From Sulfurihydrogenibium subterraneum DSM 15120 (GTDB lineage Bacteria > Aquificota > Aquificia > Aquificales > Hydrogenothermaceae): 64,000 nucleotides of DNA. The DNA lies in NCBI RefSeq assembly GCF_000619805.1, contig NZ_JHUV01000010.1, positions 124,001 through 188,000 on the forward strand, in the 5' to 3' direction. This document shows, piece by piece, positions 1 to 15,373 of this stretch (position 1 is its first letter; each line of letters opens with the position of its first letter). The notes under the pieces are model-generated. The model was not told the DNA's origin, ran no database searches, and saw only the letters and a list, made by a program, of their open reading frames with translations. Made by a program: the position numbers and the translations under genes.

Positions 1-618
1 CATATCTCCGTAGTAATAGATAAGGTCTCTGTTTTTTTCATTTAATTTTTCTCTATTTACAGCCTTATACTTTATACAAGTAGGAGCTATTTTTACTCCA
101 ATTTGAAAAGCTAACTCTACAAATGATGATTTAAAAGGTAAAACAGTCTCACCGTTTGAAGTAGTTCCTTCTAAGAATATAACTAAGTTAAAACCTTTTT
201 CTAACACCTCTTTTAACATTTCTATTTCTCGTTTTATACCATTTTTAGATTGTCTATCTATAAATACACTTCCTCCATACTCTGCTATCTTTCCAAATAA
301 AAAGGTGTTTTTTACTTCATAAGTTGACACAAAAAGATTTTTATCACTGTTTTTTAAAATAAGAATGTCTAAATAAGATAGATGGTTTGGCGTAATTATG
401 TAGCTTTCTTCAGGATTTAGGTTAAAGTTATTTATGTAAACTTTTATATTAAAAAGTTTTAAAGCTAAGTCTCTGTAAAAGTTGCTATTTTTTATAAGTT
501 TATGTAATCTTTTTCTCTTATCTACGGTAAAAAAGTAGATAAAGGTTGAAGATAAAAAAAATAAAAAAGTTAGGACTAAAAAAATGCCAGCTCTGTATAA
601 AAATCTAATGTATTTCAC
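1..618 (-). CDS. PlsC/OlsA-type acyltransferase (3' end missing)
   Basis: Lysophospholipid-type O-acyltransferase, cut by the left window edge. Translating the minus strand from a GTG at 618 gives an N-terminal membrane segment (about residues 8-30), then the acceptor/catalytic motif NHLSYLD (HX4D) and the downstream motif EGTTSNG, both hallmarks of the PlsC family. The GTG overlaps the last 14 bases of the OlsB-like gene, so the two are translationally coupled; the start codon is uncertain because no ATG is in frame nearby and the ribosome site (GAAAG) is weak. An OlsB homologue followed by a PlsC homologue is the established arrangement for ornithine-lipid synthesis, where OlsA adds the second acyl chain to lyso-ornithine lipid. 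Its exact acceptor (lyso-ornithine lipid versus lysophosphatidate) is inferred from context only. Confidence 0.8.
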   Translation of the reverse strand, partial: MKYIRFLYRAGIFLVLTFLFFLSSTFIYFFTVDKRKRLHKLIKNSNFYRDLALKLFNIKVYINNFNLNPEESYIITPNHLSYLDILILKNSDKNLFVSTYEVKNTFLFGKIAEYGGSVFIDRQSKNGIKREIEMLKEVLEKGFNLVIFLEGTTSNGETVLPFKSSFVELAFQIGVKIAPTCIKYKAVNREKLNEKNRDLIYYYGDM

Positions 619-1441
619 TTTTTTTATACTTTCTTTCAAAAGTTTTTGTCAAATTATCTGTGTTTAAAACTGTTAGAAAATCAATACACTGAAACTCTCT
701 ATCTAATGCAGGATAACTACACACAGAAGATCCTGCATTTAGGTATGCTTTTAAAAGTGATGGAATTAAGTCTTTTGCTTTTTCTAAGTCTGGATTCAGC
801 TGTTGTAAAAAGTTTAAATATTTGTCAAACTTTGGCATGACATAATCGGGCTTTACTTCACAGAGTAGATTTTCGTTAAAATAGTTTTTTCTAAGATGTA
901 AGTATAGATACGCAGCTTCTACTGGGTCTGTTATGTAAACACTCGAACAACCAAATAGATATTTAGAGTCTGTTTGTTTTACGTAATCAGCTATACCTTT
1001 CCATAAAAGTGCAATTGTGATACCGTTTCTATGGTCTTTCTTTATTGCAGCTCTACCCATCTCTAAAATATTTCCGTTTAACTTTTTTATGTTGTCTATG
1101 TAAAACTCTGTTTCTGAGTAAAACTTGTTAGAAAAAAGAGAAGATATTAATCTATAAGTACCTATTGGTTTACCTGTTTTTTTGTCAATAATTATTATGT
1201 GGTCTGCTAAAAGGTCGAACTCGTCAAAGTCTATAGGAATAAGTTTTTTCTTACCTTCTAAAAATACTTCAAACCTAAGTTTTAGTAAATCTAAAAGCTC
1301 GTTTTTTGTTTGAGCTGTCTTTACAATGTAGGAGTTTGTTTCTATGTGTATGTTTACTTTACTTTTTAAATTTTTTATTTTGTACTTATAAAAGTTTATA
1401 GGTATGTTTTTAACTTTTTTTATCTTATTTATAGCTATCAT
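605..1441 (-). CDS. olsB: OlsB-type N-acyltransferase (ornithine lipid synthesis)
   Basis: Member of the Acetyltransf_5/COG3176 GNAT-fold family (also annotated hemolysin-like). Recognisable blocks in order are a DEFDLLADH segment, GTYRL, the YSETEF block, LEMGRAAI, HRNG and YLFGCSS, spaced as in OlsB. The 278-residue length fits. OlsB transfers a 3-hydroxyacyl group from acyl-ACP to the alpha-amino group of ornithine, the first step of ornithine-lipid synthesis in the cytoplasm or at the inner membrane face. The start is supported by a strong AAGGAGG site 8 bases upstream. It lies 15 bp after the small DUF2934-like gene and overlaps the downstream PlsC-like gene, so all three look co-transcribed from a promoter near 1663-1705. 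The amino acid used (ornithine, glycine, lysine) cannot be read from the sequence. Confidence 0.82.
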   Translation of the reverse strand: MIAINKIKKVKNIPINFYKYKIKNLKSKVNIHIETNSYIVKTAQTKNELLDLLKLRFEVFLEGKKKLIPIDFDEFDLLADHIIIIDKKTGKPIGTYRLISSLFSNKFYSETEFYIDNIKKLNGNILEMGRAAIKKDHRNGITIALLWKGIADYVKQTDSKYLFGCSSVYITDPVEAAYLYLHLRKNYFNENLLCEVKPDYVMPKFDKYLNFLQQLNPDLEKAKDLIPSLLKAYLNAGSSVCSYPALDREFQCIDFLTVLNTDNLTKTFERKYKKSEIH

Positions 1442-2422: not shown

Positions 2423-2446
2423 ATCTTTTCAAGGACTTGAAGTTAT

Positions 2447-2475
2447 TTGTATAACTATAAAAACTATGATAAAAT
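2447..2475 (+). promoter_or_regulatory. candidate promoter for the dynamin-like operon
   Basis: In the 87-bp gap before the first dynamin-like gene there is TTGTAT (2447-2452), a 17-bp spacer and TAAAAT (2470-2475), about 35 bp before the start codon and upstream of a strong AAGGAGGG site. It is weak and AT-rich, so it is offered as a candidate only. Confidence 0.3.
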
Positions 2476-2509
2476 TCAAGTATAGTTTATCTAAGGAGGG
2501 TAAATAAGT

Positions 2510-4498
2510 ATGATTGACTTAAACTACTATAACAGAGAAAAATCTAAGGTAATAGAAAATGTAAATAATTACATAATTAGATTAAAGAAAGGTAAGGAAA
2601 TTTTAAGCTCTGTAAATTTACCTATAAATTTTGATGAATTTACGGAAAAATTAGATGGAATTGTAAAATCCTTAATAGATGATAAAGTAAGAGTTTCTGT
2701 AATAGCAGAAGTTTCAAATGGTAAATCTACATTCCTAAATGCACTTATATTTAAGAACATTATTCTTGATGCAAGGATTGGAGAAACAACAGCAAGGCTT
2801 TATCATATTTCTTACGGTGATGAATATGCAGTAAAATACAAAAATTTAGAAAAAAAATTTAACAGTTTAGAAGAAATAAAAGAATTTATAAAGCAATTAA
2901 ACAAAGAAACATTAGAAAAAGCAGAAGAAAGTAGAGAGGGAGGAAAAGTTTTAAATATTTCAGAAGATGAGTTAAGCGTGTTTATTTACATACCTTTGGA
3001 ACATTTGAGAGTTGGAATAGAGGTTATTGACACACCCGGGTTTGGAACGCTAAATGAAGAATTAATGATGAAATTTATTACAAGTGCTATTCATTCAAGT
3101 GATGCTGTTATAACTATACTTGATATAAGTCAAGGAATTAAGAAAAGTGAAAGCGAGAAATTTTCAAAGCTATTGTCCATGATAAGGCCTGACAAAAGGT
3201 ATATTGTTTTTAATAAGGTAGATTCATATGAAGATGAGGTAGAAAATTTTGATTATGTTAGTAGAGATGTTATAAACAATATGAACAGGATTTTAGAAAA
3301 GCAAGGATATGACCAAAAAATTGATGTAAATCAATTGTTTTATGTTTCAGCTAAATTAGCACTGCAAGGCTTTATTAAGCAAGCAAAAGCTGAAACTTTA
3401 GATGAGGGAGCTAAAAAATATAAGGAGTTATTCGAGGAGTTTGAAAAAGAGTTCTGGAACGATGTTATAAATTACAAACAAAAAGAATTTTTATCTGATA
3501 AAATCTCTTCCTTTGAAAGATTAAAAGACTCTATAAATAAAGAAATTAATAGTATTTACAAAAATTTAAAGAATAGATTATTACAAATAAAAGCTGAGAA
3601 AGATAAGATATTAAGATCACAATATGAAATAAGTTCAATGTCGTCAAAGCTTCAAGGAAAAGCTAACAATTGTATAAACTATTTAAAAAGTATTAAATTA
3701 AGTGCTGATGAAGTTATTTCTGATATTGAAGAGGAAATTTTACAAAAATCAAAAGTTATTGATTACATTGAAGAAAATTATGGTTTTTTGTCTTCACTTA
3801 CTAAAAAAGGTGAAATAGAAGAAGAAATAAAGTGTAGATTAAAAAATGTAGATATAAAAAGTATTTTAAAGAGTAATCTCAAAAAATATTATGGTGATAT
3901 TTTTGAAAGGATAAGATTCCATGTCCAGGATTATAATGAAAGTGCTTATGAGTTTAATTCTAAACTTGAAAAAATGGGAATAGAAAAATTTAGATTTCCC
4001 GTCGTAGAATACAAAGAATCTGAAGAAGGACAAGAAAAACAAATTTCAACTCAGTTTGAAATTAAAAGGAGCGGTGTTTTAGCTCCTGCATTAGGAGGAT
4101 ATCTGACAGGAGCCCTTATTGGTGGTTTAATTGAGCAATTAGTCTTAGGAACAGTTATTGGTGCAGCAGGGTTTGTTGCAGTTTCAATACTTATACCAAT
4201 TTTTATCTCAAAAGATGTGAAAAAGAAAAAAGAAGAATTAAAACAAAAAATCAGAGAAGGAGTTCGTAATAGTCTTTATGATATAAAGGTAGAAATTAAT
4301 AAACTAAATAATACTTTAGAAGACTATATAGACGATATTAGAAGAAAAGTTATCGAAGTTGAATTTATTAATTCAGAAATAATAAAAGCCCTTGAAAAAA
4401 GTGATTTAGACGAAGAGATAAAAAAGATAGAAAATCAATTAGATACATTAAAAAACATAGCTAATGTTTTAGAAATAAAAATCTTAGCGGAGGTTTAA
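2510..4498 (+). CDS. dynamin-like GTPase 1
   Basis: Large GTPase of the bacterial dynamin-like (Dynamin_N) family, 662 residues. The G1 loop is at residues 66-73 (AEVSNGKS; the usual first Gly is Ala), G2 threonines are at 93-94 (GETT), G3 DTPG at 174-177 and G4 NKVD at 235-238. Long helical, coiled-coil-rich stalk regions follow. Near residues 525-572 a Gly/Ala/Ile-rich hydrophobic hairpin resembles the membrane paddle of bacterial dynamins. Such proteins bind and remodel membranes upon GTP binding and often act as hetero-oligomers of neighbouring genes. A strong AAGGAGGG site precedes the ATG. The next dynamin-like gene starts 3 bp after the stop. The cellular role (membrane fusion, stress or phage tolerance) is unknown. 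Confidence 0.85.
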   Translation: MIDLNYYNREKSKVIENVNNYIIRLKKGKEILSSVNLPINFDEFTEKLDGIVKSLIDDKVRVSVIAEVSNGKSTFLNALIFKNIILDARIGETTARLYHISYGDEYAVKYKNLEKKFNSLEEIKEFIKQLNKETLEKAEESREGGKVLNISEDELSVFIYIPLEHLRVGIEVIDTPGFGTLNEELMMKFITSAIHSSDAVITILDISQGIKKSESEKFSKLLSMIRPDKRYIVFNKVDSYEDEVENFDYVSRDVINNMNRILEKQGYDQKIDVNQLFYVSAKLALQGFIKQAKAETLDEGAKKYKELFEEFEKEFWNDVINYKQKEFLSDKISSFERLKDSINKEINSIYKNLKNRLLQIKAEKDKILRSQYEISSMSSKLQGKANNCINYLKSIKLSADEVISDIEEEILQKSKVIDYIEENYGFLSSLTKKGEIEEEIKCRLKNVDIKSILKSNLKKYYGDIFERIRFHVQDYNESAYEFNSKLEKMGIEKFRFPVVEYKESEEGQEKQISTQFEIKRSGVLAPALGGYLTGALIGGLIEQLVLGTVIGAAGFVAVSILIPIFISKDVKKKKEELKQKIREGVRNSLYDIKVEINKLNNTLEDYIDDIRRKVIEVEFINSEIIKALEKSDLDEEIKKIENQLDTLKNIANVLEIKILAEV

Positions 4499-4500
4499 AG

Positions 4501-6054
4501 ATGGAGCAGGAACTTAAAGTTTTAAGAAATAATATATTGTTTTTAAGAAATGAATACCTTGAAAAACTTTGTGATGTTGCAATTGATGTTATAAAAAGGG
4601 ATAAAATAGAAGTCATTTTTGTTGGTAAATTATCAACTGGAAAAAGTACGATAATGAATGCTCTCCTTGACAGAAACATTATGCCAACAGGGATTGGAAC
4701 TATTACAAAATCTATAAACACAGTTATAAAATCTGATGAAGACAAAATCGAAGTTATTTATAAAGATGGAAACTCTGAGGTTTATCAACTTAATGAAAAA
4801 AGTTTTGAACTTATAAACGGAAAAGCCAATATAAAAGCCGTAAATGTTTATCTTAAAGACTTTCCTTTTTCAAGTGTAATATTTGTAGATACACCCGGAA
4901 TTGATGAGCTACAAGAAAACTTGGAAAACTTAACTCTATCAAGAATCCCTACAGCTGACGCCGTAGTATTCGTTTTAGATATATCAAAAGGTTTAACAAA
5001 AAAAGATAAAGAGTTTTTTAATGATTATATTATTAAGTTTTTGAGAGATAAAATTTTTATTGTCTTTAATAAGCTTGATTTAGTTAAAGATGAAGTTGAT
5101 GAAGAACAAATCCAAAATGTAAAAAAGGATTTAGAAGGATTTACAGTGTTTGTATTTTCTGCAAAAGAGAAAGATAAAGACTTTTTTGCTTTTAAAAATC
5201 AATTATTTAACTATCTTTCAGAAACTAGTAAATCCCAAATCATAAAATCAAGGATAAACTCAATTATAAAAGCGATTGAAGAAGTTTCTAAAAAACAGTT
5301 AAACTCACTAATTGAAAATAAACAAAAAACAAAAGAAGAGCTTCAATCAAAATTATCTGAATTAAAAATGAAGAAAGCTGAGCTTGACAATACATTAAAT
5401 GATTTGAGGAAGAAGGTAGAAGTAGAAATTTTAGATATTATAAATAACAAAATTGTCCCACTTATTGATAATAAAAGAATAGAAGTTATTACAAAAGTAA
5501 AAAACATGGATCCAGATAATCTAAAAACTTATTTATCAGTGAATTTAAGAAATGAAATTCAATCACTTATAGTGAGCATAAAAGAAAATCTAAATAAGTC
5601 AAAATTTGACTTTAACATCGCAGAACTTTCTGGAATAGGGTCTACTTCATCCTTTACATCTTTTATCTTATCGTCGATAGACATTTTAGGAAAGATACTT
5701 GACCCATTACTAAAAAGATTCAATCTTCCAGACTTAACTGATGTTATTCAAGATTTGATTAAAACATTAGCTATGAGTAATATTGAAGACGATATAAATA
5801 AAATTTTTGACAAAATTAAAGAAAATATCATTTATTCTATAGAAAGCTCTAAAGACTATTACTTTGAGGAGTTAAAACTTAGAGAACATGCTAATTTAGA
5901 TAGTGAAATTGTTTCGACCGAGAAAAGTATTGAATTTATTGGAAAAGATAAAGAAGAAATTGAAAATGAACTAAAATTTTATGAAAGTAAGATAAAGGTT
6001 ATAGAAGACACTGTAAATAACATAAGGAGTATTCTTGAAAGTAAAGTTATTTAG
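4501..6054 (+). CDS. dynamin-like GTPase 2
   Basis: Second of three adjacent dynamin-like GTPases, 517 residues. Motifs: G1 GKLSTGKS at 42-49, G2 within GIGTITKS, G3 DTPG at 130-133, G4 NKLD at 190-193. The rest is helical, with a long Lys/Glu-rich coiled coil. A less hydrophobic segment near residues 375-425 (SFILSSIDILGKILDPLLKR) could be an amphipathic membrane-contact region rather than a full paddle, so this may be the partner subunit lacking its own membrane hairpin. GGAGG lies 8 bases upstream of ATG, 3 bp after gene 1. Residues 160-172 (DISKGLTKKDKEF) are identical in GTPase 3. Confidence 0.83.
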   Translation: MEQELKVLRNNILFLRNEYLEKLCDVAIDVIKRDKIEVIFVGKLSTGKSTIMNALLDRNIMPTGIGTITKSINTVIKSDEDKIEVIYKDGNSEVYQLNEKSFELINGKANIKAVNVYLKDFPFSSVIFVDTPGIDELQENLENLTLSRIPTADAVVFVLDISKGLTKKDKEFFNDYIIKFLRDKIFIVFNKLDLVKDEVDEEQIQNVKKDLEGFTVFVFSAKEKDKDFFAFKNQLFNYLSETSKSQIIKSRINSIIKAIEEVSKKQLNSLIENKQKTKEELQSKLSELKMKKAELDNTLNDLRKKVEVEILDIINNKIVPLIDNKRIEVITKVKNMDPDNLKTYLSVNLRNEIQSLIVSIKENLNKSKFDFNIAELSGIGSTSSFTSFILSSIDILGKILDPLLKRFNLPDLTDVIQDLIKTLAMSNIEDDINKIFDKIKENIIYSIESSKDYYFEELKLREHANLDSEIVSTEKSIEFIGKDKEEIENELKFYESKIKVIEDTVNNIRSILESKVI

Positions 6055-6065
6055 GGTGATGATTT

Positions 6066-7547
6066 ATGATAGAAAAACTTCTTGAAAAACTTGAGGAAAA
6101 AACAGACAAAATAAAACAAAAGAAAGAATATTTTATGATAAAACCTACTGTGTGTGTTGTTGGTAAAATGTCAGCTGGTAAATCTTCATTTTTAAATTTA
6201 TTATTAGGTAAAGAAATATTTCTATCTAGATTGGGAGAGACTACTAAAAGTATAACAAAAATTGAGTTATGCGATAATAAATTATTAGTATCAGAATTGA
6301 ATAAAACGGATTTTAAAATTAAAGAAAAAATTTCAATTTCATCGATTTATTCTGAATTTTTATCGTTTCTAAACATAGTAGATGTTCCTGGTTATGACGC
6401 AAGCTACGATGAAGAGATTAAAGCTTACCTTAAAGATGGAGAATACGATATAGTCTTATACATACTTGACATATCAAAAGGTTTAACAAAAAAAGATAAA
6501 GAGTTTTTAGAACTTTTGCAAGAAAAAGAACCTTATGTTTTATTCATTTTAAATAAAATAGATTTATCCGCAGATGAAGATAAAGAAGATACCAAAGACC
6601 ACTTAAACAAAATAAAAAATGATATAGAAAAAATATATCCGAAGAGAAAAATTTTAGGTTATGTTCCATCTTCAGCCACAAAATTTAGGAAAAATAAAGA
6701 ATTAGTTAAATTTTTACAAGATATTATTATAATTGCTTCTTATGTTTCTACATTTAAGAGTAATTTAAACATAATAAGGAATGGAACTATAGAAGCCATT
6801 AACAAAAATATGGTTAAAGTTAAAGAAAGGGACAAATATTACACAAATTTTTATCTCAATAAATTATACGATGAACTTTATAAAATCTCAAATTTTGACA
6901 TTATAACTGATAGTAAGAATGTTATTGAAAAGCTGATAGAAAATTTAAACTTTGAACTGCAAAACGAAATAAGTAAAGATATGGAAACAATAAAGAAGGC
7001 TTTTAATGAGGTAATTAATAATGTTAGAAAATTCATAAACGATATGTCAATTTCCTATATTGAAATTTTAAATTTAGATTTAGATTATGATTTTGGGCAA
7101 GAATATTTAGTCTCAGATTTTTCAAGATTTACTATAGGACAAACTGATTATTCTGAAGAAATCTTAGATGAGATTTTCAATGGAATTATGGTTTCTATAG
7201 GTGGAGGAATACTTGCAAGACTTGCTTTAGGAGCTCTTATTCCAGGTATAGGAACACTTGTTTTCTTAGGGTCGTTAGTTTATACATTTATGAATTTAGG
7301 CAAAAAAGCCGATGAAATAAGAAGTAAAGTTTATAATGAAGTTTCATACAGATTACCGTCAATTATAACAAGTAGTTGGGAAAGTGTGTGTGGAGATATT
7401 GAGAAAAACTTCATAGAACAAATAGACTCTATAACCAAAAGTAAAGATATTGATGAGTTTCTCAATAAACTGATTTCTGGAGCTTACAATATGAATGAAG
7501 AACTTTCAAGCGTTATTATAGATAACATGGATAAACTTTGTAAATAG
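6066..7547 (+). CDS. dynamin-like GTPase 3
   Basis: Third dynamin-like GTPase, 493 residues. G1 GKMSAGKS at 33-40, G2 GETTKS near 58, G3 DVPG at 106-109 (Val for the usual Thr), G4 NKID at 163-166. A hydrophobic Gly-rich hairpin around residues 375-410 (GGGILARLALGALIPGIGTL) resembles a membrane paddle. It begins 11 bp after GTPase 2 and ends the operon, converging with phoR 16 bp away without an evident terminator. Two paddle-bearing members flanking one paddle-poor member suggests a hetero-oligomeric membrane-remodelling complex; this is inference from the layout and from known tandem bacterial dynamin pairs. Confidence 0.83.
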   Translation: MIEKLLEKLEEKTDKIKQKKEYFMIKPTVCVVGKMSAGKSSFLNLLLGKEIFLSRLGETTKSITKIELCDNKLLVSELNKTDFKIKEKISISSIYSEFLSFLNIVDVPGYDASYDEEIKAYLKDGEYDIVLYILDISKGLTKKDKEFLELLQEKEPYVLFILNKIDLSADEDKEDTKDHLNKIKNDIEKIYPKRKILGYVPSSATKFRKNKELVKFLQDIIIIASYVSTFKSNLNIIRNGTIEAINKNMVKVKERDKYYTNFYLNKLYDELYKISNFDIITDSKNVIEKLIENLNFELQNEISKDMETIKKAFNEVINNVRKFINDMSISYIEILNLDLDYDFGQEYLVSDFSRFTIGQTDYSEEILDEIFNGIMVSIGGGILARLALGALIPGIGTLVFLGSLVYTFMNLGKKADEIRSKVYNEVSYRLPSIITSSWESVCGDIEKNFIEQIDSITKSKDIDEFLNKLISGAYNMNEELSSVIIDNMDKLCK

Positions 7548-8562: not shown

Positions 8563-9211
8563 CTAACTCCTGATGTCTTAACATTTTTCCTTCTTTCATA
8601 TATATTACTTCTTCTGCAAGGTTTGTAGCTATATCTGCTACCCTTTCTATATTTTTAACAACATCTATAAGTCTAAGACCTACCTTTATAGTTGTAGGGT
8701 CTTCTACCATGTATGTGTAGAGCTCCCTAATAATTTGGTCTTCCAAGGCATCTATTTTATCGTCTCTTTTTATAACGTCTCTTGCAAGTTCTGTGTCCAT
8801 TTCTGCAAAAGATTTAATAGCATCTTTTAACATCTGAATTGCCATCTGGGTCATTATTGGTAAGTCCACATACTCTTTTAACTTTGGTTTTTGTAAAATT
8901 GACTGGGCATGCTCTTTTATGTTTTCTGCGTGGTCTCCTATTCTTTCTAAATCTCTGTTAACAAATAAGTCCATTACTAAAAATCTTAAATACTTTGCCT
9001 CTGGTTGGTATCTTGCCATTGTAGTTATTATTAAGCTTTCATTTTCTACTTCCATCTTATCAACTACATCTTCATTTTCTTCAACATACTTCAAATAGTC
9101 TGGATTATGCTCAATTATAGCCTTTATTGCGTTGTCTATCATATTTTCTGCTATTTCTGCCATTTTTAAAAGTCTTTCTCTAATTTCTGTAAGTCTTGGC
9201 TCTATTAACAT
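8552..9211 (-). CDS. phoU: PhoU phosphate-signalling regulator
   Basis: 219 residues, all helical, made of two PhoU repeats (about 15-105 and 120-210). Acidic metal-cluster motifs are visible, including DRxxDHAExI (ERIGDHAENI) in the first repeat and ERVADIATNLAEEVIY in the second. PhoU links the Pst transporter to PhoR and keeps the Pho regulon off when phosphate is plentiful. It overlaps the HepT-like gene by 7 bp upstream and phoR by 11 bp downstream, so it is tightly coupled to both. Confidence 0.93.
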   Translation of the reverse strand: MLIEPRLTEIRERLLKMAEIAENMIDNAIKAIIEHNPDYLKYVEENEDVVDKMEVENESLIITTMARYQPEAKYLRFLVMDLFVNRDLERIGDHAENIKEHAQSILQKPKLKEYVDLPIMTQMAIQMLKDAIKSFAEMDTELARDVIKRDDKIDALEDQIIRELYTYMVEDPTTIKVGLRLIDVVKNIERVADIATNLAEEVIYMKEGKMLRHQELDEE

Positions 9212-9645
9212 TTTATTTCCTCCTGAACGTATTTTTTTATTTTATCAAAGTCTTGTAAAAAAATACTGCTTAATTTTGCGATAGTTTCATAAATCTCTTC
9301 TAACTTTTCTGGTAAATATGCGTGAACAACTTTGTTTCTAAGAAGCTTTGCTTCCATGTAATCTTCTAAGTTGTTAATTATTCCTAATTTTTCTATCCTT
9401 TGAAGTCTTTGTCTAATAGTTTGAGATAAATCTCCATATAAATAAAGTTCAAGGCTTTTGAAGAAGCTGAGAAACATCTCTACCACTTTTTCAAATCTGA
9501 AGGATAAAGAGTCATAATATTCTAAGTCTTCATAAGAGTAAACAACGGTTGGGTCAAAGGGTTTATACTTTAATAAAGAATACTCTAAAAGTTTTACACT
9601 GCTTTCCAAGTCTTTATAAGCTTGACAAATCAAGTCTTTCTGCAT
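9205..9645 (-). CDS. hepT: HEPN-domain protein, HepT-like toxin
   Basis: 146-residue helical protein of the HEPN (HepT-like) family. The signature R-x4-H-x-Y is present as R103, H108 and Y110 (RNKVVHAY); in characterised HepT proteins this is the RNase active site and the Tyr is the residue modified by the partner MntA. The partner nucleotidyltransferase gene lies immediately upstream and overlaps it by 32 bp. The pair sits inside the pst operon, between pstB and phoU, and its stop overlaps the phoU start. It therefore should be expressed under phosphate limitation. Toxin-antitoxin activity follows from family knowledge and has not been shown here. Confidence 0.8.
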   Translation of the reverse strand: MQKDLICQAYKDLESSVKLLEYSLLKYKPFDPTVVYSYEDLEYYDSLSFRFEKVVEMFLSFFKSLELYLYGDLSQTIRQRLQRIEKLGIINNLEDYMEAKLLRNKVVHAYLPEKLEEIYETIAKLSSIFLQDFDKIKKYVQEEIKC

Positions 9646-9901
9646 CTTTCATTACTTCCTTTATAAAAGGGTCGTTTTCTCTGTATATTGCTATATCTAT
9701 ATTTGTGTCTGTGAGTAAAAAGTATTTTGTTTGATAATTTAAAATGTCCTTTAATGTCAGCTCTCTATCTGTTTTTAGGATTAAGTCTATGTCCCCTCCT
9801 TTTTTATCGTTTTTTGTCCTTGACCCAAATAAATAAATCTCTCCTTTAAAGTCTTTAAAAACTTCTTTTAATGCTTGTTTTTCAAAGTCATATAGTCTCA
9901 T
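9614..9901 (-). CDS. mntA: MNT-domain nucleotidyltransferase, MntA-like antitoxin
   Basis: Minimal nucleotidyltransferase of about 95 residues with the polymerase-beta active-site motif GS-x9-D-x-D (G26, S27, D37, D39 counted from the ATG at 9901). MntA proteins neutralise HepT by adding AMP groups to its conserved Tyr. A TTG at 9910 would overlap the pstB end by 8 bp; the ATG at 9901, one base after the pstB stop, is preferred. It overlaps the HepT-like gene by 32 bp. Position inside the pst operon is unusual for this module. Confidence 0.8.
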   Translation of the reverse strand: MRLYDFEKQALKEVFKDFKGEIYLFGSRTKNDKKGGDIDLILKTDRELTLKDILNYQTKYFLLTDTNIDIAIYRENDPFIKEVMKDAERLDLSSL

Positions 9902-9902
9902 C

Positions 9903-10667
9903 TTATCCAAATCTACCTGAGATGTAGTCTTCTGTTAATTTTTTGTTTGGTTTAGTAAATATAATATCTGTTGAGTCAAATTCAATAAGCTCTCCAAGGT
10001 ACATAAATGCTGTATAATCTGATACTCTTGCAGCTTGTTGCATGTTGTGAGTAACGATGATTATTGTGTGGTTTTTCTTTAGCTCTACTGTTAACTCTTC
10101 TATCTTAGCCGTTGATATTGGGTCTAACGCCGAGGTAGGCTCGTCAAACAGAATAACCTCTGGCTTTACTGCTATAGTTCTTGCTATACATAGTCTTTGT
10201 TGTTGTCCTCCTGACAGTCCAAAGGCTGAGGTATCTAACCTGTCTTTTACTTCATCCCAAAGTGCAGCTTCTTTTAAAGCTTGCTCTACTCTGTCTTTTA
10301 ATTCTGTTTTGTTTTTTATACCTTGAAGTCTAAGTCCATAGGCTATATTTTCAAAAATAGACATAGGAAATGGTGTAGGTTTTTGAAATACCATTCCTAC
10401 TTTTGTTCTGAGTTCCATTAAGTCTATATCTTTGCTTAAAATGTTTTTTCCGTCTAAAAGTATCTCTCCTTCGTATCTGTTTCCTGGATATAAGTCGTGC
10501 ATTCTGTTAAAACATCTTAAAAGTGTTGTTTTACCACAACCTGATGGACCTATTAAAGCTGTTATCTTCTTTTCATAAATAGGCATATTGATATTTTTTA
10601 GTGCAAGTTTATTGCCTGCATAGTAAAAGTTGAGGTTTTTTACTTCCATCTTTAAATTTTCTGCCAT
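9903..10667 (-). CDS. pstB: phosphate ABC transporter ATPase PstB
   Basis: 254 residues. Walker A is GPSGCGKTT, the Q-loop is [13 protein letters not shown], the ABC signature is LSGGQQQRL, Walker B is VILFDEP and the switch His is in VTHNM. The sequence [11 protein letters not shown] after Walker A is characteristic of PstB. It is the cytoplasmic ATPase that powers high-affinity phosphate import with PstA and PstC. The start has an AGGAGG site (revcomp of 10675-10682). It lies 18 bp after pstA and is followed after one base by the mntA-like gene. Confidence 0.96.
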
Positions 10668-15161: not shown

Positions 15162-15251
15162 GGATGGGTGTCCGAGTGGCCGAAGGAGCAGCACTGGAAA
15201 TGCTGTGTACGGGTAATCCCCGTACCGCGGGTTCGAATCCCGCCCCATCCG
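15162..15251 (+). tRNA. tRNA-Ser (anticodon GGA)
   Basis: Class II tRNA of 90 nt. The acceptor stem GGATGGG (15162-15168) pairs with CCCATCC (15244-15250), followed by discriminator G at 15251. The anticodon stem CAGCA/TGCTG encloses the loop CTGGAAA, giving anticodon GGA at 15196-15198, which reads UCC and UCU. A long variable arm (TACGGG/CCCGTA) and a T arm with GGGTTCGAATCCC are present. CCA is not encoded. The SRP RNA follows about 17 bp downstream. Confidence 0.97.
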
Positions 15252-15268
15252 CTTGGCAGTAGAAAACA

Positions 15269-15361
15269 ATCGGGACCCTCCGGGTAGGAGACGGTGAACC
15301 TCCCCAGGTCCGGAAGGAAGCAAGGATAAGCCGAACCTCCTATGCCGGAGTAAGTCCCGTT
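15269..15361 (+). ncRNA. ffs: 4.5S signal recognition particle RNA
   Basis: Short bacterial SRP RNA of about 93 nt. The universally conserved tip is present as CAGGTCCGGAAGGAAGCA near 15305-15322, binding the Ffh M domain. The outer ends CGGGAC (15271-15276) and GTCCCG (15354-15359) pair, and inner segments fold into the single hairpin. There is no Alu domain, as in most Gram-negative bacteria. It appears co-transcribed with tRNA-Ser, and no separate promoter or strong terminator is visible. Confidence 0.95.
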
Positions 15362-15373
15362 AATATAAAAATT

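What the first reader, a model, noticed from the sequence alone, without database searches (positions are those of the whole stretch)
2510..7547. Operon of three consecutive dynamin-like GTPases
Bacterial dynamins are known singly, fused, or as pairs. Here three related but distinct GTPases follow each other with gaps of 2-11 bp. The first and third have Gly-rich membrane hairpins, the middle one has only an amphipathic stretch. This suggests a three-component membrane-remodelling machine, possibly in envelope stress or phage tolerance.
Basis: partly seen in the sequence, partly recalled or inferred. Interest (0 to 1): 0.7.

Follow-up and report, generated by a model that had tools for sequence, protein, structure and literature searches.

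The report
Acquired trio of bacterial dynamin GTPases
Three membrane-shaping GTPases of the dynamin family really are encoded back to back here, on a piece of DNA that the nearest related genome lacks; two form an old, co-inherited pair and the third looks like an add-on, a layout that also turns up in gut and soil bacteria and that probably helps the cell hold its membrane together under attack.

Summary
ORFs A (2510-4498, 662 aa), B (4501-6054, 517 aa) and C (6066-7547, 493 aa) are three complete dynamin-like proteins (DLPs). They lie 2 and 11 bp apart, have intact GTPase motifs, and are the genome's only strong Dynamin_N matches. A and C have hydrophobic Gly-rich tips; B does not.

The trio lies on a 5.1-kb accessory segment. 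The nearest sister genome has 375 unrelated bases at this site, and no close homologue occurs in 136 genomes of the phylum.

A and B are a LeoBC-like/LeoA-like pair. Their only close relatives are one unplaced contig (A-B order, same 2-bp gap) and a Campylobacteraceae MAG (A and B unlinked, no C). The A and B trees are concordant. C has no orthologue found.

The premise 'singly, fused or pairs' is incomplete: 41 of 55 loci found elsewhere with an A-type probe carry three adjacent DLPs. These belong to other families, mostly in Bacillota and Bacteroidota, each position usually its own clade.

Best explanation: a pair-plus-one, hetero-oligomeric, membrane-protecting (probably anti-phage) DLP system. 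The anatomy and mobility are shown; the function is inferred. Novelty: new variant of a known kind.

The parts
2510..4498 (+). Gene A: LeoBC-type dynamin-like GTPase, 662 aa, hydrophobic paddle
   Evidence: Pfam Dynamin_N 3.9e-19; PADLOC LeoBC 2.2e-17 over residues 169-644; clade with L038_A and L039_A, support 100/98
4501..6054 (+). Gene B: LeoA-type dynamin-like GTPase, 517 aa, no strong hydrophobic tip
   Evidence: Dynamin_N 5.4e-22; PADLOC LeoA 1.3e-12; clade with L038_B and L132_B, support 100/99; AF2 model matches BDLP1/IniA
6066..7547 (+). Gene C: compact dynamin-like GTPase, 493 aa, hydrophobic tip, no orthologue found
   Evidence: Dynamin_N 6.9e-18; no close match outside this genome in any search made; AF2 model matches BDLP1/Cj-DLPs
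2705..2731 (+). A: P-loop AEVSNGKST (residues 66-74)
   Evidence: sequence; invariant E-S-N-G-K-S-T in the A clade
4624..4650 (+). B: P-loop GKLSTGKST (residues 42-50)
   Evidence: sequence; alignments
6162..6188 (+). C: P-loop GKMSAGKSS (residues 33-41)
   Evidence: sequence; K39 invariant in a 36-row alignment
4076..4207 (+). A: Gly-rich hydrophobic tip (about residues 523-566)
   Evidence: KD19 maximum 2.48
5647..5790 (+). B: amphipathic, low-confidence tip (about residues 383-430)
   Evidence: KD19 maximum 1.25, moment about 0.55; pLDDT below 50 at residues 370-415
7179..7301 (+). C: Gly-rich hydrophobic tip (about residues 372-412)
   Evidence: KD19 maximum 2.01
2490..2509 (+). Strong ribosome-binding site (aaggaggg) before A
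   Evidence: sequence
4487..4500 (+). Ribosome-binding site (gcggagg) for B lying in the last codons of A
   Evidence: sequence
2444..7545 (.). Accessory segment absent from the sister genome; homology to G004 stops at 2443 and resumes at 7546
   Evidence: blastn of the window against L030; flanking genes 93-95% identical in G004

Best explanation
A horizontally acquired, accessory dynamin operon built as a pair plus one. A (LeoBC-type, with membrane paddle) and B (LeoA-type, no strong paddle) form the obligate heterotypic GTPase core: they dimerise through their GTPase heads, A inserts in the inner leaflet of the cytoplasmic membrane, and B completes or stimulates GTP hydrolysis. C, a second paddle-bearing DLP of another lineage, was recruited to the same transcript and gives a second membrane contact or a mixed polymer. 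On envelope damage, most likely phage attack, the complex clusters on the inner membrane and tethers, patches or fuses bilayers, delaying lysis. SHOWN: three intact DLPs in one likely transcription unit; unequal tips; A and B co-inherited; segment absent from the sister genome. INFERRED by analogy to Cj-DLP1/2, LeoABC and DynA: hetero-oligomerisation, membrane activity, defence role, and that C joins A-B.
For: Dynamin_N in all three and BDLP1/IniA/Cj-DLP folds for B and C. All three A-clade proteins have PADLOC LeoBC as best match and all three B-clade proteins LeoA; leoBC lies upstream of leoA in ETEC too (PMC4159319). The A and B trees have the same branching (BB28, (window, L038)) although A and B are unlinked in BB28. 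The 2-bp A-B gap recurs in L038. Accessory segment with low GC (0.26-0.27, GC3 0.18-0.19, against 0.29-0.34 for most other genes sampled). Triads in other lineages sit on plasmids in Lysinibacillus. [quoted passage not shown] LeoA alone shows no GTP binding or hydrolysis (PMC4159319); DynA delays phage lysis in B. subtilis (PMC8844932); Eleos/Dynamins are scored as defence systems (PMC11811056).
Against: No defence gene next to the trio: the flanks are an RNase H-like gene and the phosphate (pho/pst) cluster. The nearest relatives do not keep C, and in one A and B are unlinked. The PADLOC Leo models also hit other DLP families well, so the Leo labels are weak. No expression, interaction or phage data. 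The promoter scan is no better than chance and no terminator was found. The left flank is equally AT-rich.
Confidence: 0.5

Rival explanations
1. Only A-B is the machine; C is an independent, recently added DLP that merely shares the promoter and works alone or not at all.
For: C lacks orthologues and sits on a very long branch (1.99); BB28 has A and B but no C; the B-C gap is larger with a weaker ribosome-binding site.
Against: C is an intact, full-length ORF with all motifs and a paddle; triads with a third DLP recur in other lineages, which suggests that a third member is useful.
Confidence: 0.25
2. A vesiculation or envelope-trafficking device in the manner proposed for ETEC LeoABC: it promotes release of membrane vesicles rather than resisting phage or damage.
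For: A/B resemble LeoBC/LeoA in class and order; leoA, leoB and leoAB deletion halves vesicle cargo in ETEC (PMC4159319).
Against: No signal peptides noticed in A, B or C (no predictor run); cytosolic GTPases would have to act from the inner face; no vesicle genes nearby; the Leo vesicle role is itself called tentative in PMC6104087.
Confidence: 0.15
3. A housekeeping membrane-remodelling system of this lineage.
For: Single chromosomal copy, no transposase or integrase at the junctions.
Against: Absent from the sister species at the same site and from all other 135 genomes of the phylum searched, including the rest of the genus.
Confidence: 0.05
4. Mis-called ordinary translation GTPases (Era/Der/YsxC-like) or an ORF artefact.
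For: C's best single-sequence PDB matches are Der (EngA).
Against: Dynamin_N outscores MMR_HSR1 for all three; long helical trunks follow the head; BDLP-type folds; full-length profile alignment to other DLPs.
Confidence: 0.01

Closest known systems
LeoC-LeoB-LeoA of ETEC H10407 (PADLOC 'Dynamins'; Eleos in DefenseFinder, recalled from memory as LeoBC + LeoA)
   Same: Three adjacent dynamin genes on an accessory segment; LeoBC-type gene upstream of LeoA-type gene; proposed cooperation
   Different: There leoC+leoB are one split DLP, so two DLPs in all; here three complete DLPs; low sequence identity; no gene here corresponds to leoC, and ETEC has nothing like C
Cj-DLP1/Cj-DLP2 pair of Campylobacter jejuni (PMC6104087)
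   Same: Side-by-side DLPs, predicted obligate heterotypic partners; B and C models match both folds
   Different: Pair, not trio; different clade (Campylobacterota DLPs group elsewhere in the tree); no HcpA-like gene here
DynA of Bacillus subtilis (phage-lysis delay, PMC8844932)
   Same: More than one dynamin module working at the inner membrane; likely membrane surveillance
   Different: Two modules fused in one protein
DLP triads of Bacilli, Clostridia and Bacteroidales found here (e.g. L041, L060, L035 on plasmid pFN9B)
   Same: Three adjacent DLPs, tight spacing (most gaps under about 140 bp, some overlapping)
   Different: Genes not orthologous to A, B or C; those operons carry extra conserved small genes (c0/c1/c2 or c4), absent here

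Membership tests
Dynamin superfamily (bacterial DLP) | Dynamin_N GTPase domain with P-loop, DxxG and N/TKxD | tested here: met
   motifs read
Dynamin superfamily (bacterial DLP) | Helical neck/trunk after the head and BDLP-like fold | tested here: met
   B and C: models and Foldseek, moderate confidence and low TM-scores (hinge differences); A: full-length profile alignment only
Dynamin superfamily (bacterial DLP) | Membrane-binding paddle | tested here: inconclusive
   Hydrophobic tip in A and C, not in B; lipid binding not testable here
LeoABC/Eleos (PADLOC Dynamins) | Adjacent LeoBC and LeoA genes | tested here: inconclusive
   A best hit LeoBC 2e-17, B best hit LeoA 1e-12, but these models also hit unrelated DLP triads at 1e-22 and have no curated cut-off
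LeoABC/Eleos (PADLOC Dynamins) | Anti-phage activity | not testable with these tools
   needs phage assays
LeoABC of ETEC | LeoBC split into LeoC (about 206 aa) + LeoB | tested here: not met
   A is one intact 662-aa ORF
Cj-DLP1/2 type pair | Same clade as Campylobacterota DLPs | tested here: not met
   Campylobacterota DLPs group with the BacX clade, not with A, B or C
DLP triads of Bacilli / Clostridia-Bacteroidales | Members fall in the position-specific clades X/A/B or X/Y/Z | tested here: not met
   A and B form their own clades; C alone on a long branch
DLP triads of Bacilli / Clostridia-Bacteroidales | Conserved accessory genes c0/c1/c2 or c4 | tested here: not met
   none flank the trio

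The most novel reading that the evidence does not exclude
Three-component dynamin operons are a general but overlooked class of mobile bacterial membrane-defence machine, assembled several times independently by adding a third DLP of another lineage to a conserved heterotypic pair. The window's trio is one such independent assembly, in a thermophilic (Aquificota-like) host.
Probability: 0.35. Interest if true: 0.68.

Novelty: new variant of a known kind. Interest (0 to 1): 0.45.

Why it matters
Bacterial dynamins are currently understood through pairs and fusions. If triads are a recurrent, mobile arrangement, hetero-oligomer models built on two partners are incomplete. A thermophile's compact proteins (493-662 aa), one of which lacks a strong hydrophobic tip, would be a good system for reconstituting a three-part membrane machine. 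The position-specific clades in other triads make the question of one machine or three proteins directly testable by co-purification and single-gene deletion.

Tried and rejected
Single-protein and early profile scans of viral contigs with A, C or A/B profiles found nothing, so no sign of phage carriage of this subfamily in IMG/VR. PHROGs gave only weak chance-like hits. tblastn of plasmids and phages gave only distant DLPs, but these revealed the Lysinibacillus triads. One-to-one orthology of A, B, C with the Bacilli or Clostridia positions was considered (hhalign scores for B with BacB and for C with CloZ) and rejected after the tree. The idea that the 375-bp filler in sister G004 is a remnant of the small operon beside the histidine kinase in G001/G003 was tested and not supported (tblastn E 0.01 or worse). 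A Parcubacteria home for L038 is doubtful: no other of 380 genomes of that phylum has it, so the contig may be mis-binned. Local tandem duplication as the origin of A-B-C was rejected: A and B each have nearer relatives elsewhere than in the operon.

Full report
WHAT IS THERE. Three + strand ORFs, A (2510-4498, 662 aa), B (4501-6054, 517 aa) and C (6066-7547, 493 aa), follow each other with gaps of 2 and 11 bp. A has a strong ribosome-binding site (aaggaggg), and that of B lies in the last codons of A, so A-B translation is probably coupled. All three match Pfam Dynamin_N far above its cut-off. In the whole 1.61-Mb genome (99.95% complete) they are the best Dynamin_N places; everything else scores at most about 48 bits, in the range I expect of Era/Der/MnmE-type GTPases (those were not identified one by one). 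P-loop, DxPG and NKxD motifs are intact. Pairwise identity in the GTPase domain is 27-34%. B's clade members elsewhere are also weak at the tip (1.39 and 0.62), whereas the third genes of Bacilli triads reach 2.0-2.4, so weak tips look like a feature of the B clade. AlphaFold models of B and C (pLDDT 78 and 70, pTM 0.60 and 0.55) show a GTPase head plus long helices, and Foldseek's best hits are BDLP1, IniA and Cj-DLP1/2. TM-scores are low (0.3-0.5), as expected for hinged proteins and moderate models.

IT IS AN ACCESSORY SEGMENT. In the nearest sister genome (G004; flanking proteins 93-95% identical) the RNase H-like gene and the histidine kinase that flank the trio are 418 bp apart. Nucleotide homology stops at window 2443 and resumes at 7546, with 375 unrelated bases in G004. 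None of the other six genomes of the genus, nor any other of 136 genomes of the phylum, has a close homologue of A. The genes are AT-rich (GC 0.26-0.27, GC3 0.18-0.19, against 0.29-0.34 for most other genes sampled), though the left flank is AT-rich too, so composition alone would not prove transfer. No transposase, integrase or long repeat marks the junctions, so the mode of entry is unknown. From gene content and low GC I take the host to be Aquificota-like, near Hydrogenothermaceae; the tools did not name it.

A AND B ARE AN OLD PAIR; C IS AN ADDITION. A scan of 84,980 genomes with an A-type profile gave 55 loci. Only two carry true A-clade members: L038 (a contig binned as Parcubacteria, probably mis-binned) and L039 (Campylobacteraceae MAG BB28). 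L038 has A then B with the same 2-bp gap (31% and 36% identity); its contig ends inside B, so a C cannot be seen. BB28 has A alone on one contig and a B-clade gene on another, and no C-like gene. In a maximum-likelihood tree of 76 GTPase domains, the A clade (100/98) and the B clade (100/99) have the same inner branching, (BB28, (window, L038)), and C stands alone on a branch of 1.99. Co-inheritance of A and B even when unlinked is the best evidence that they work together; C is dispensable in at least one lineage. A further 397 Campylobacterota genomes searched with a B profile gave no other B-clade member, only the phylum's own DLPs.

TRIADS ARE NOT UNIQUE. Of the 55 loci, 41 hold three adjacent co-directional DLPs, 12 two, one a single DLP and one four ORFs (one DLP split in two). 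They lie in Bacilli, Clostridia and Bacteroidales, and two more are on Lysinibacillus plasmids. They fall into types with their own accessory genes: c1-c0-X-Y-Z-c2 in Clostridia/Bacteroidales; X(about 760-1070 aa)-A'-B'-c4 in Bacilli; about 750-aa x3; and a type beside a WYL-like regulator. In the first two types each position forms its own clade, so these triads are old and co-inherited. The tree also suggests that the pairs Bacilli A'/B' and Clostridia X/Y share one half of the tree, while the third members (BacX, CloZ) come from other lineages; deep forks are partly open, so this is a suggestion only. The sample is biased, because it was fetched with an A-type probe. In less biased draws, 22 of 119 Bacillota-type and 14 of 118 Bacteroidota-type genomes have strong Dynamin_N hits, and most of these are fused pairs, two-gene pairs or singles; clear triads there were only the two genomes chosen as centres. 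Triads are therefore a recurrent minority arrangement.

KNOWN WORK. Michie et al. 2014 (PMC4159319) described leoC-leoB-leoA of ETEC: three genes, but leoC+leoB are one split DLP; LeoA alone neither bound nor hydrolysed GTP; leo deletions halved vesicle cargo. Liu et al. [quoted passage not shown] DynA (two fused modules) delays phage lysis in B. subtilis (PMC8844932). Defence surveys score 'Dynamins' and 'Eleos' as defence systems (PMC11811056) and report LeoABC in an ICE-borne defence island of Pseudolactococcus (PMC13335696). PADLOC assigns all A-clade members to LeoBC and all B-clade members to LeoA; these models also hit the other triads, so the label is 'Leo-type pair', not 'member of Leo/Eleos'. 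Ten literature searches in an open-access library found no description of three-DLP operons as a class; papers outside that library were not seen.

MECHANISM (inferred). Heterotypic A-B GTPase core with A as membrane anchor and B as the partner lacking a strong tip; C adds a second membrane contact. On damage or phage attack the complex clusters on the inner membrane and tethers, patches or fuses bilayers, delaying lysis. Steps shown: intact modules, unequal tips, co-inheritance of A-B, accessory status. Steps inferred: complex formation, membrane activity, trigger and defence role. Confidence 0.5.

VERDICT. Observation confirmed; novelty premise and 'conserved triplet' idea only partly supported; new variant of a known kind; interest 0.45.

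Noticed in passing
window 9205-9910 (- strand): A MNT nucleotidyltransferase/HEPN-like pair (Polbeta plus NTase_sub_bind) sits inside the phosphate cluster between phoU and pstB. It is also present in L017 (G001), and G004 aligns across it, but in L016 and L018-L020 phoU directly abuts pstB, so it looks like another accessory insertion.
   Followed up: partly
window 1-1441 (- strand): An ornithine-lipid type acyltransferase (OlsB-like) lies next to a second, PlsC/OlsA-looking ORF cut by the window start: a probable ornithine-lipid synthesis pair just upstream of the trio.
   Followed up: no
L038:2907-4628: An AAA+ ATPase with a C-terminal TerB-like domain directly precedes the A-B pair on this contig, behind small ORFs with similar C-termini and a transposase.
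   Followed up: no
L030:2265-2640 (sister genome G004): 375 bp of unrelated sequence fills the site where the trio sits in the window; only short ORFs, origin unknown; no solid match to neighbouring small genes in G001/G003.
   Followed up: partly
L054:4375-10476: A triad in which the middle DLP is split into 134-aa and 480-aa ORFs with overlap, reminiscent of the LeoC/LeoB split or a frameshift.
   Followed up: no
L040-L092, families c0, c1, c2: Clostridia/Bacteroidales triads carry conserved small proteins: c0 (about 179 aa), c1 (one member with a C39-like peptidase domain) and c2 (about 175 aa); c0 and c2 have no Pfam match.
   Followed up: partly
L087, L090, L091 upstream of the DLPs: A conserved WYL-like transcriptional regulator (about 323 aa, cluster c12; assignment by eye) precedes another type of DLP triad.
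   Followed up: no
L037 (MT836781.1): A record labelled 'Bacteriophage sp.' from human faeces encodes two DLPs; flagged UNVERIFIED, possibly a bacterial fragment.
   Followed up: no
window 15162-15364 (+ strand): tRNA-Ser (GGA) directly followed by the small SRP RNA.
   Followed up: no
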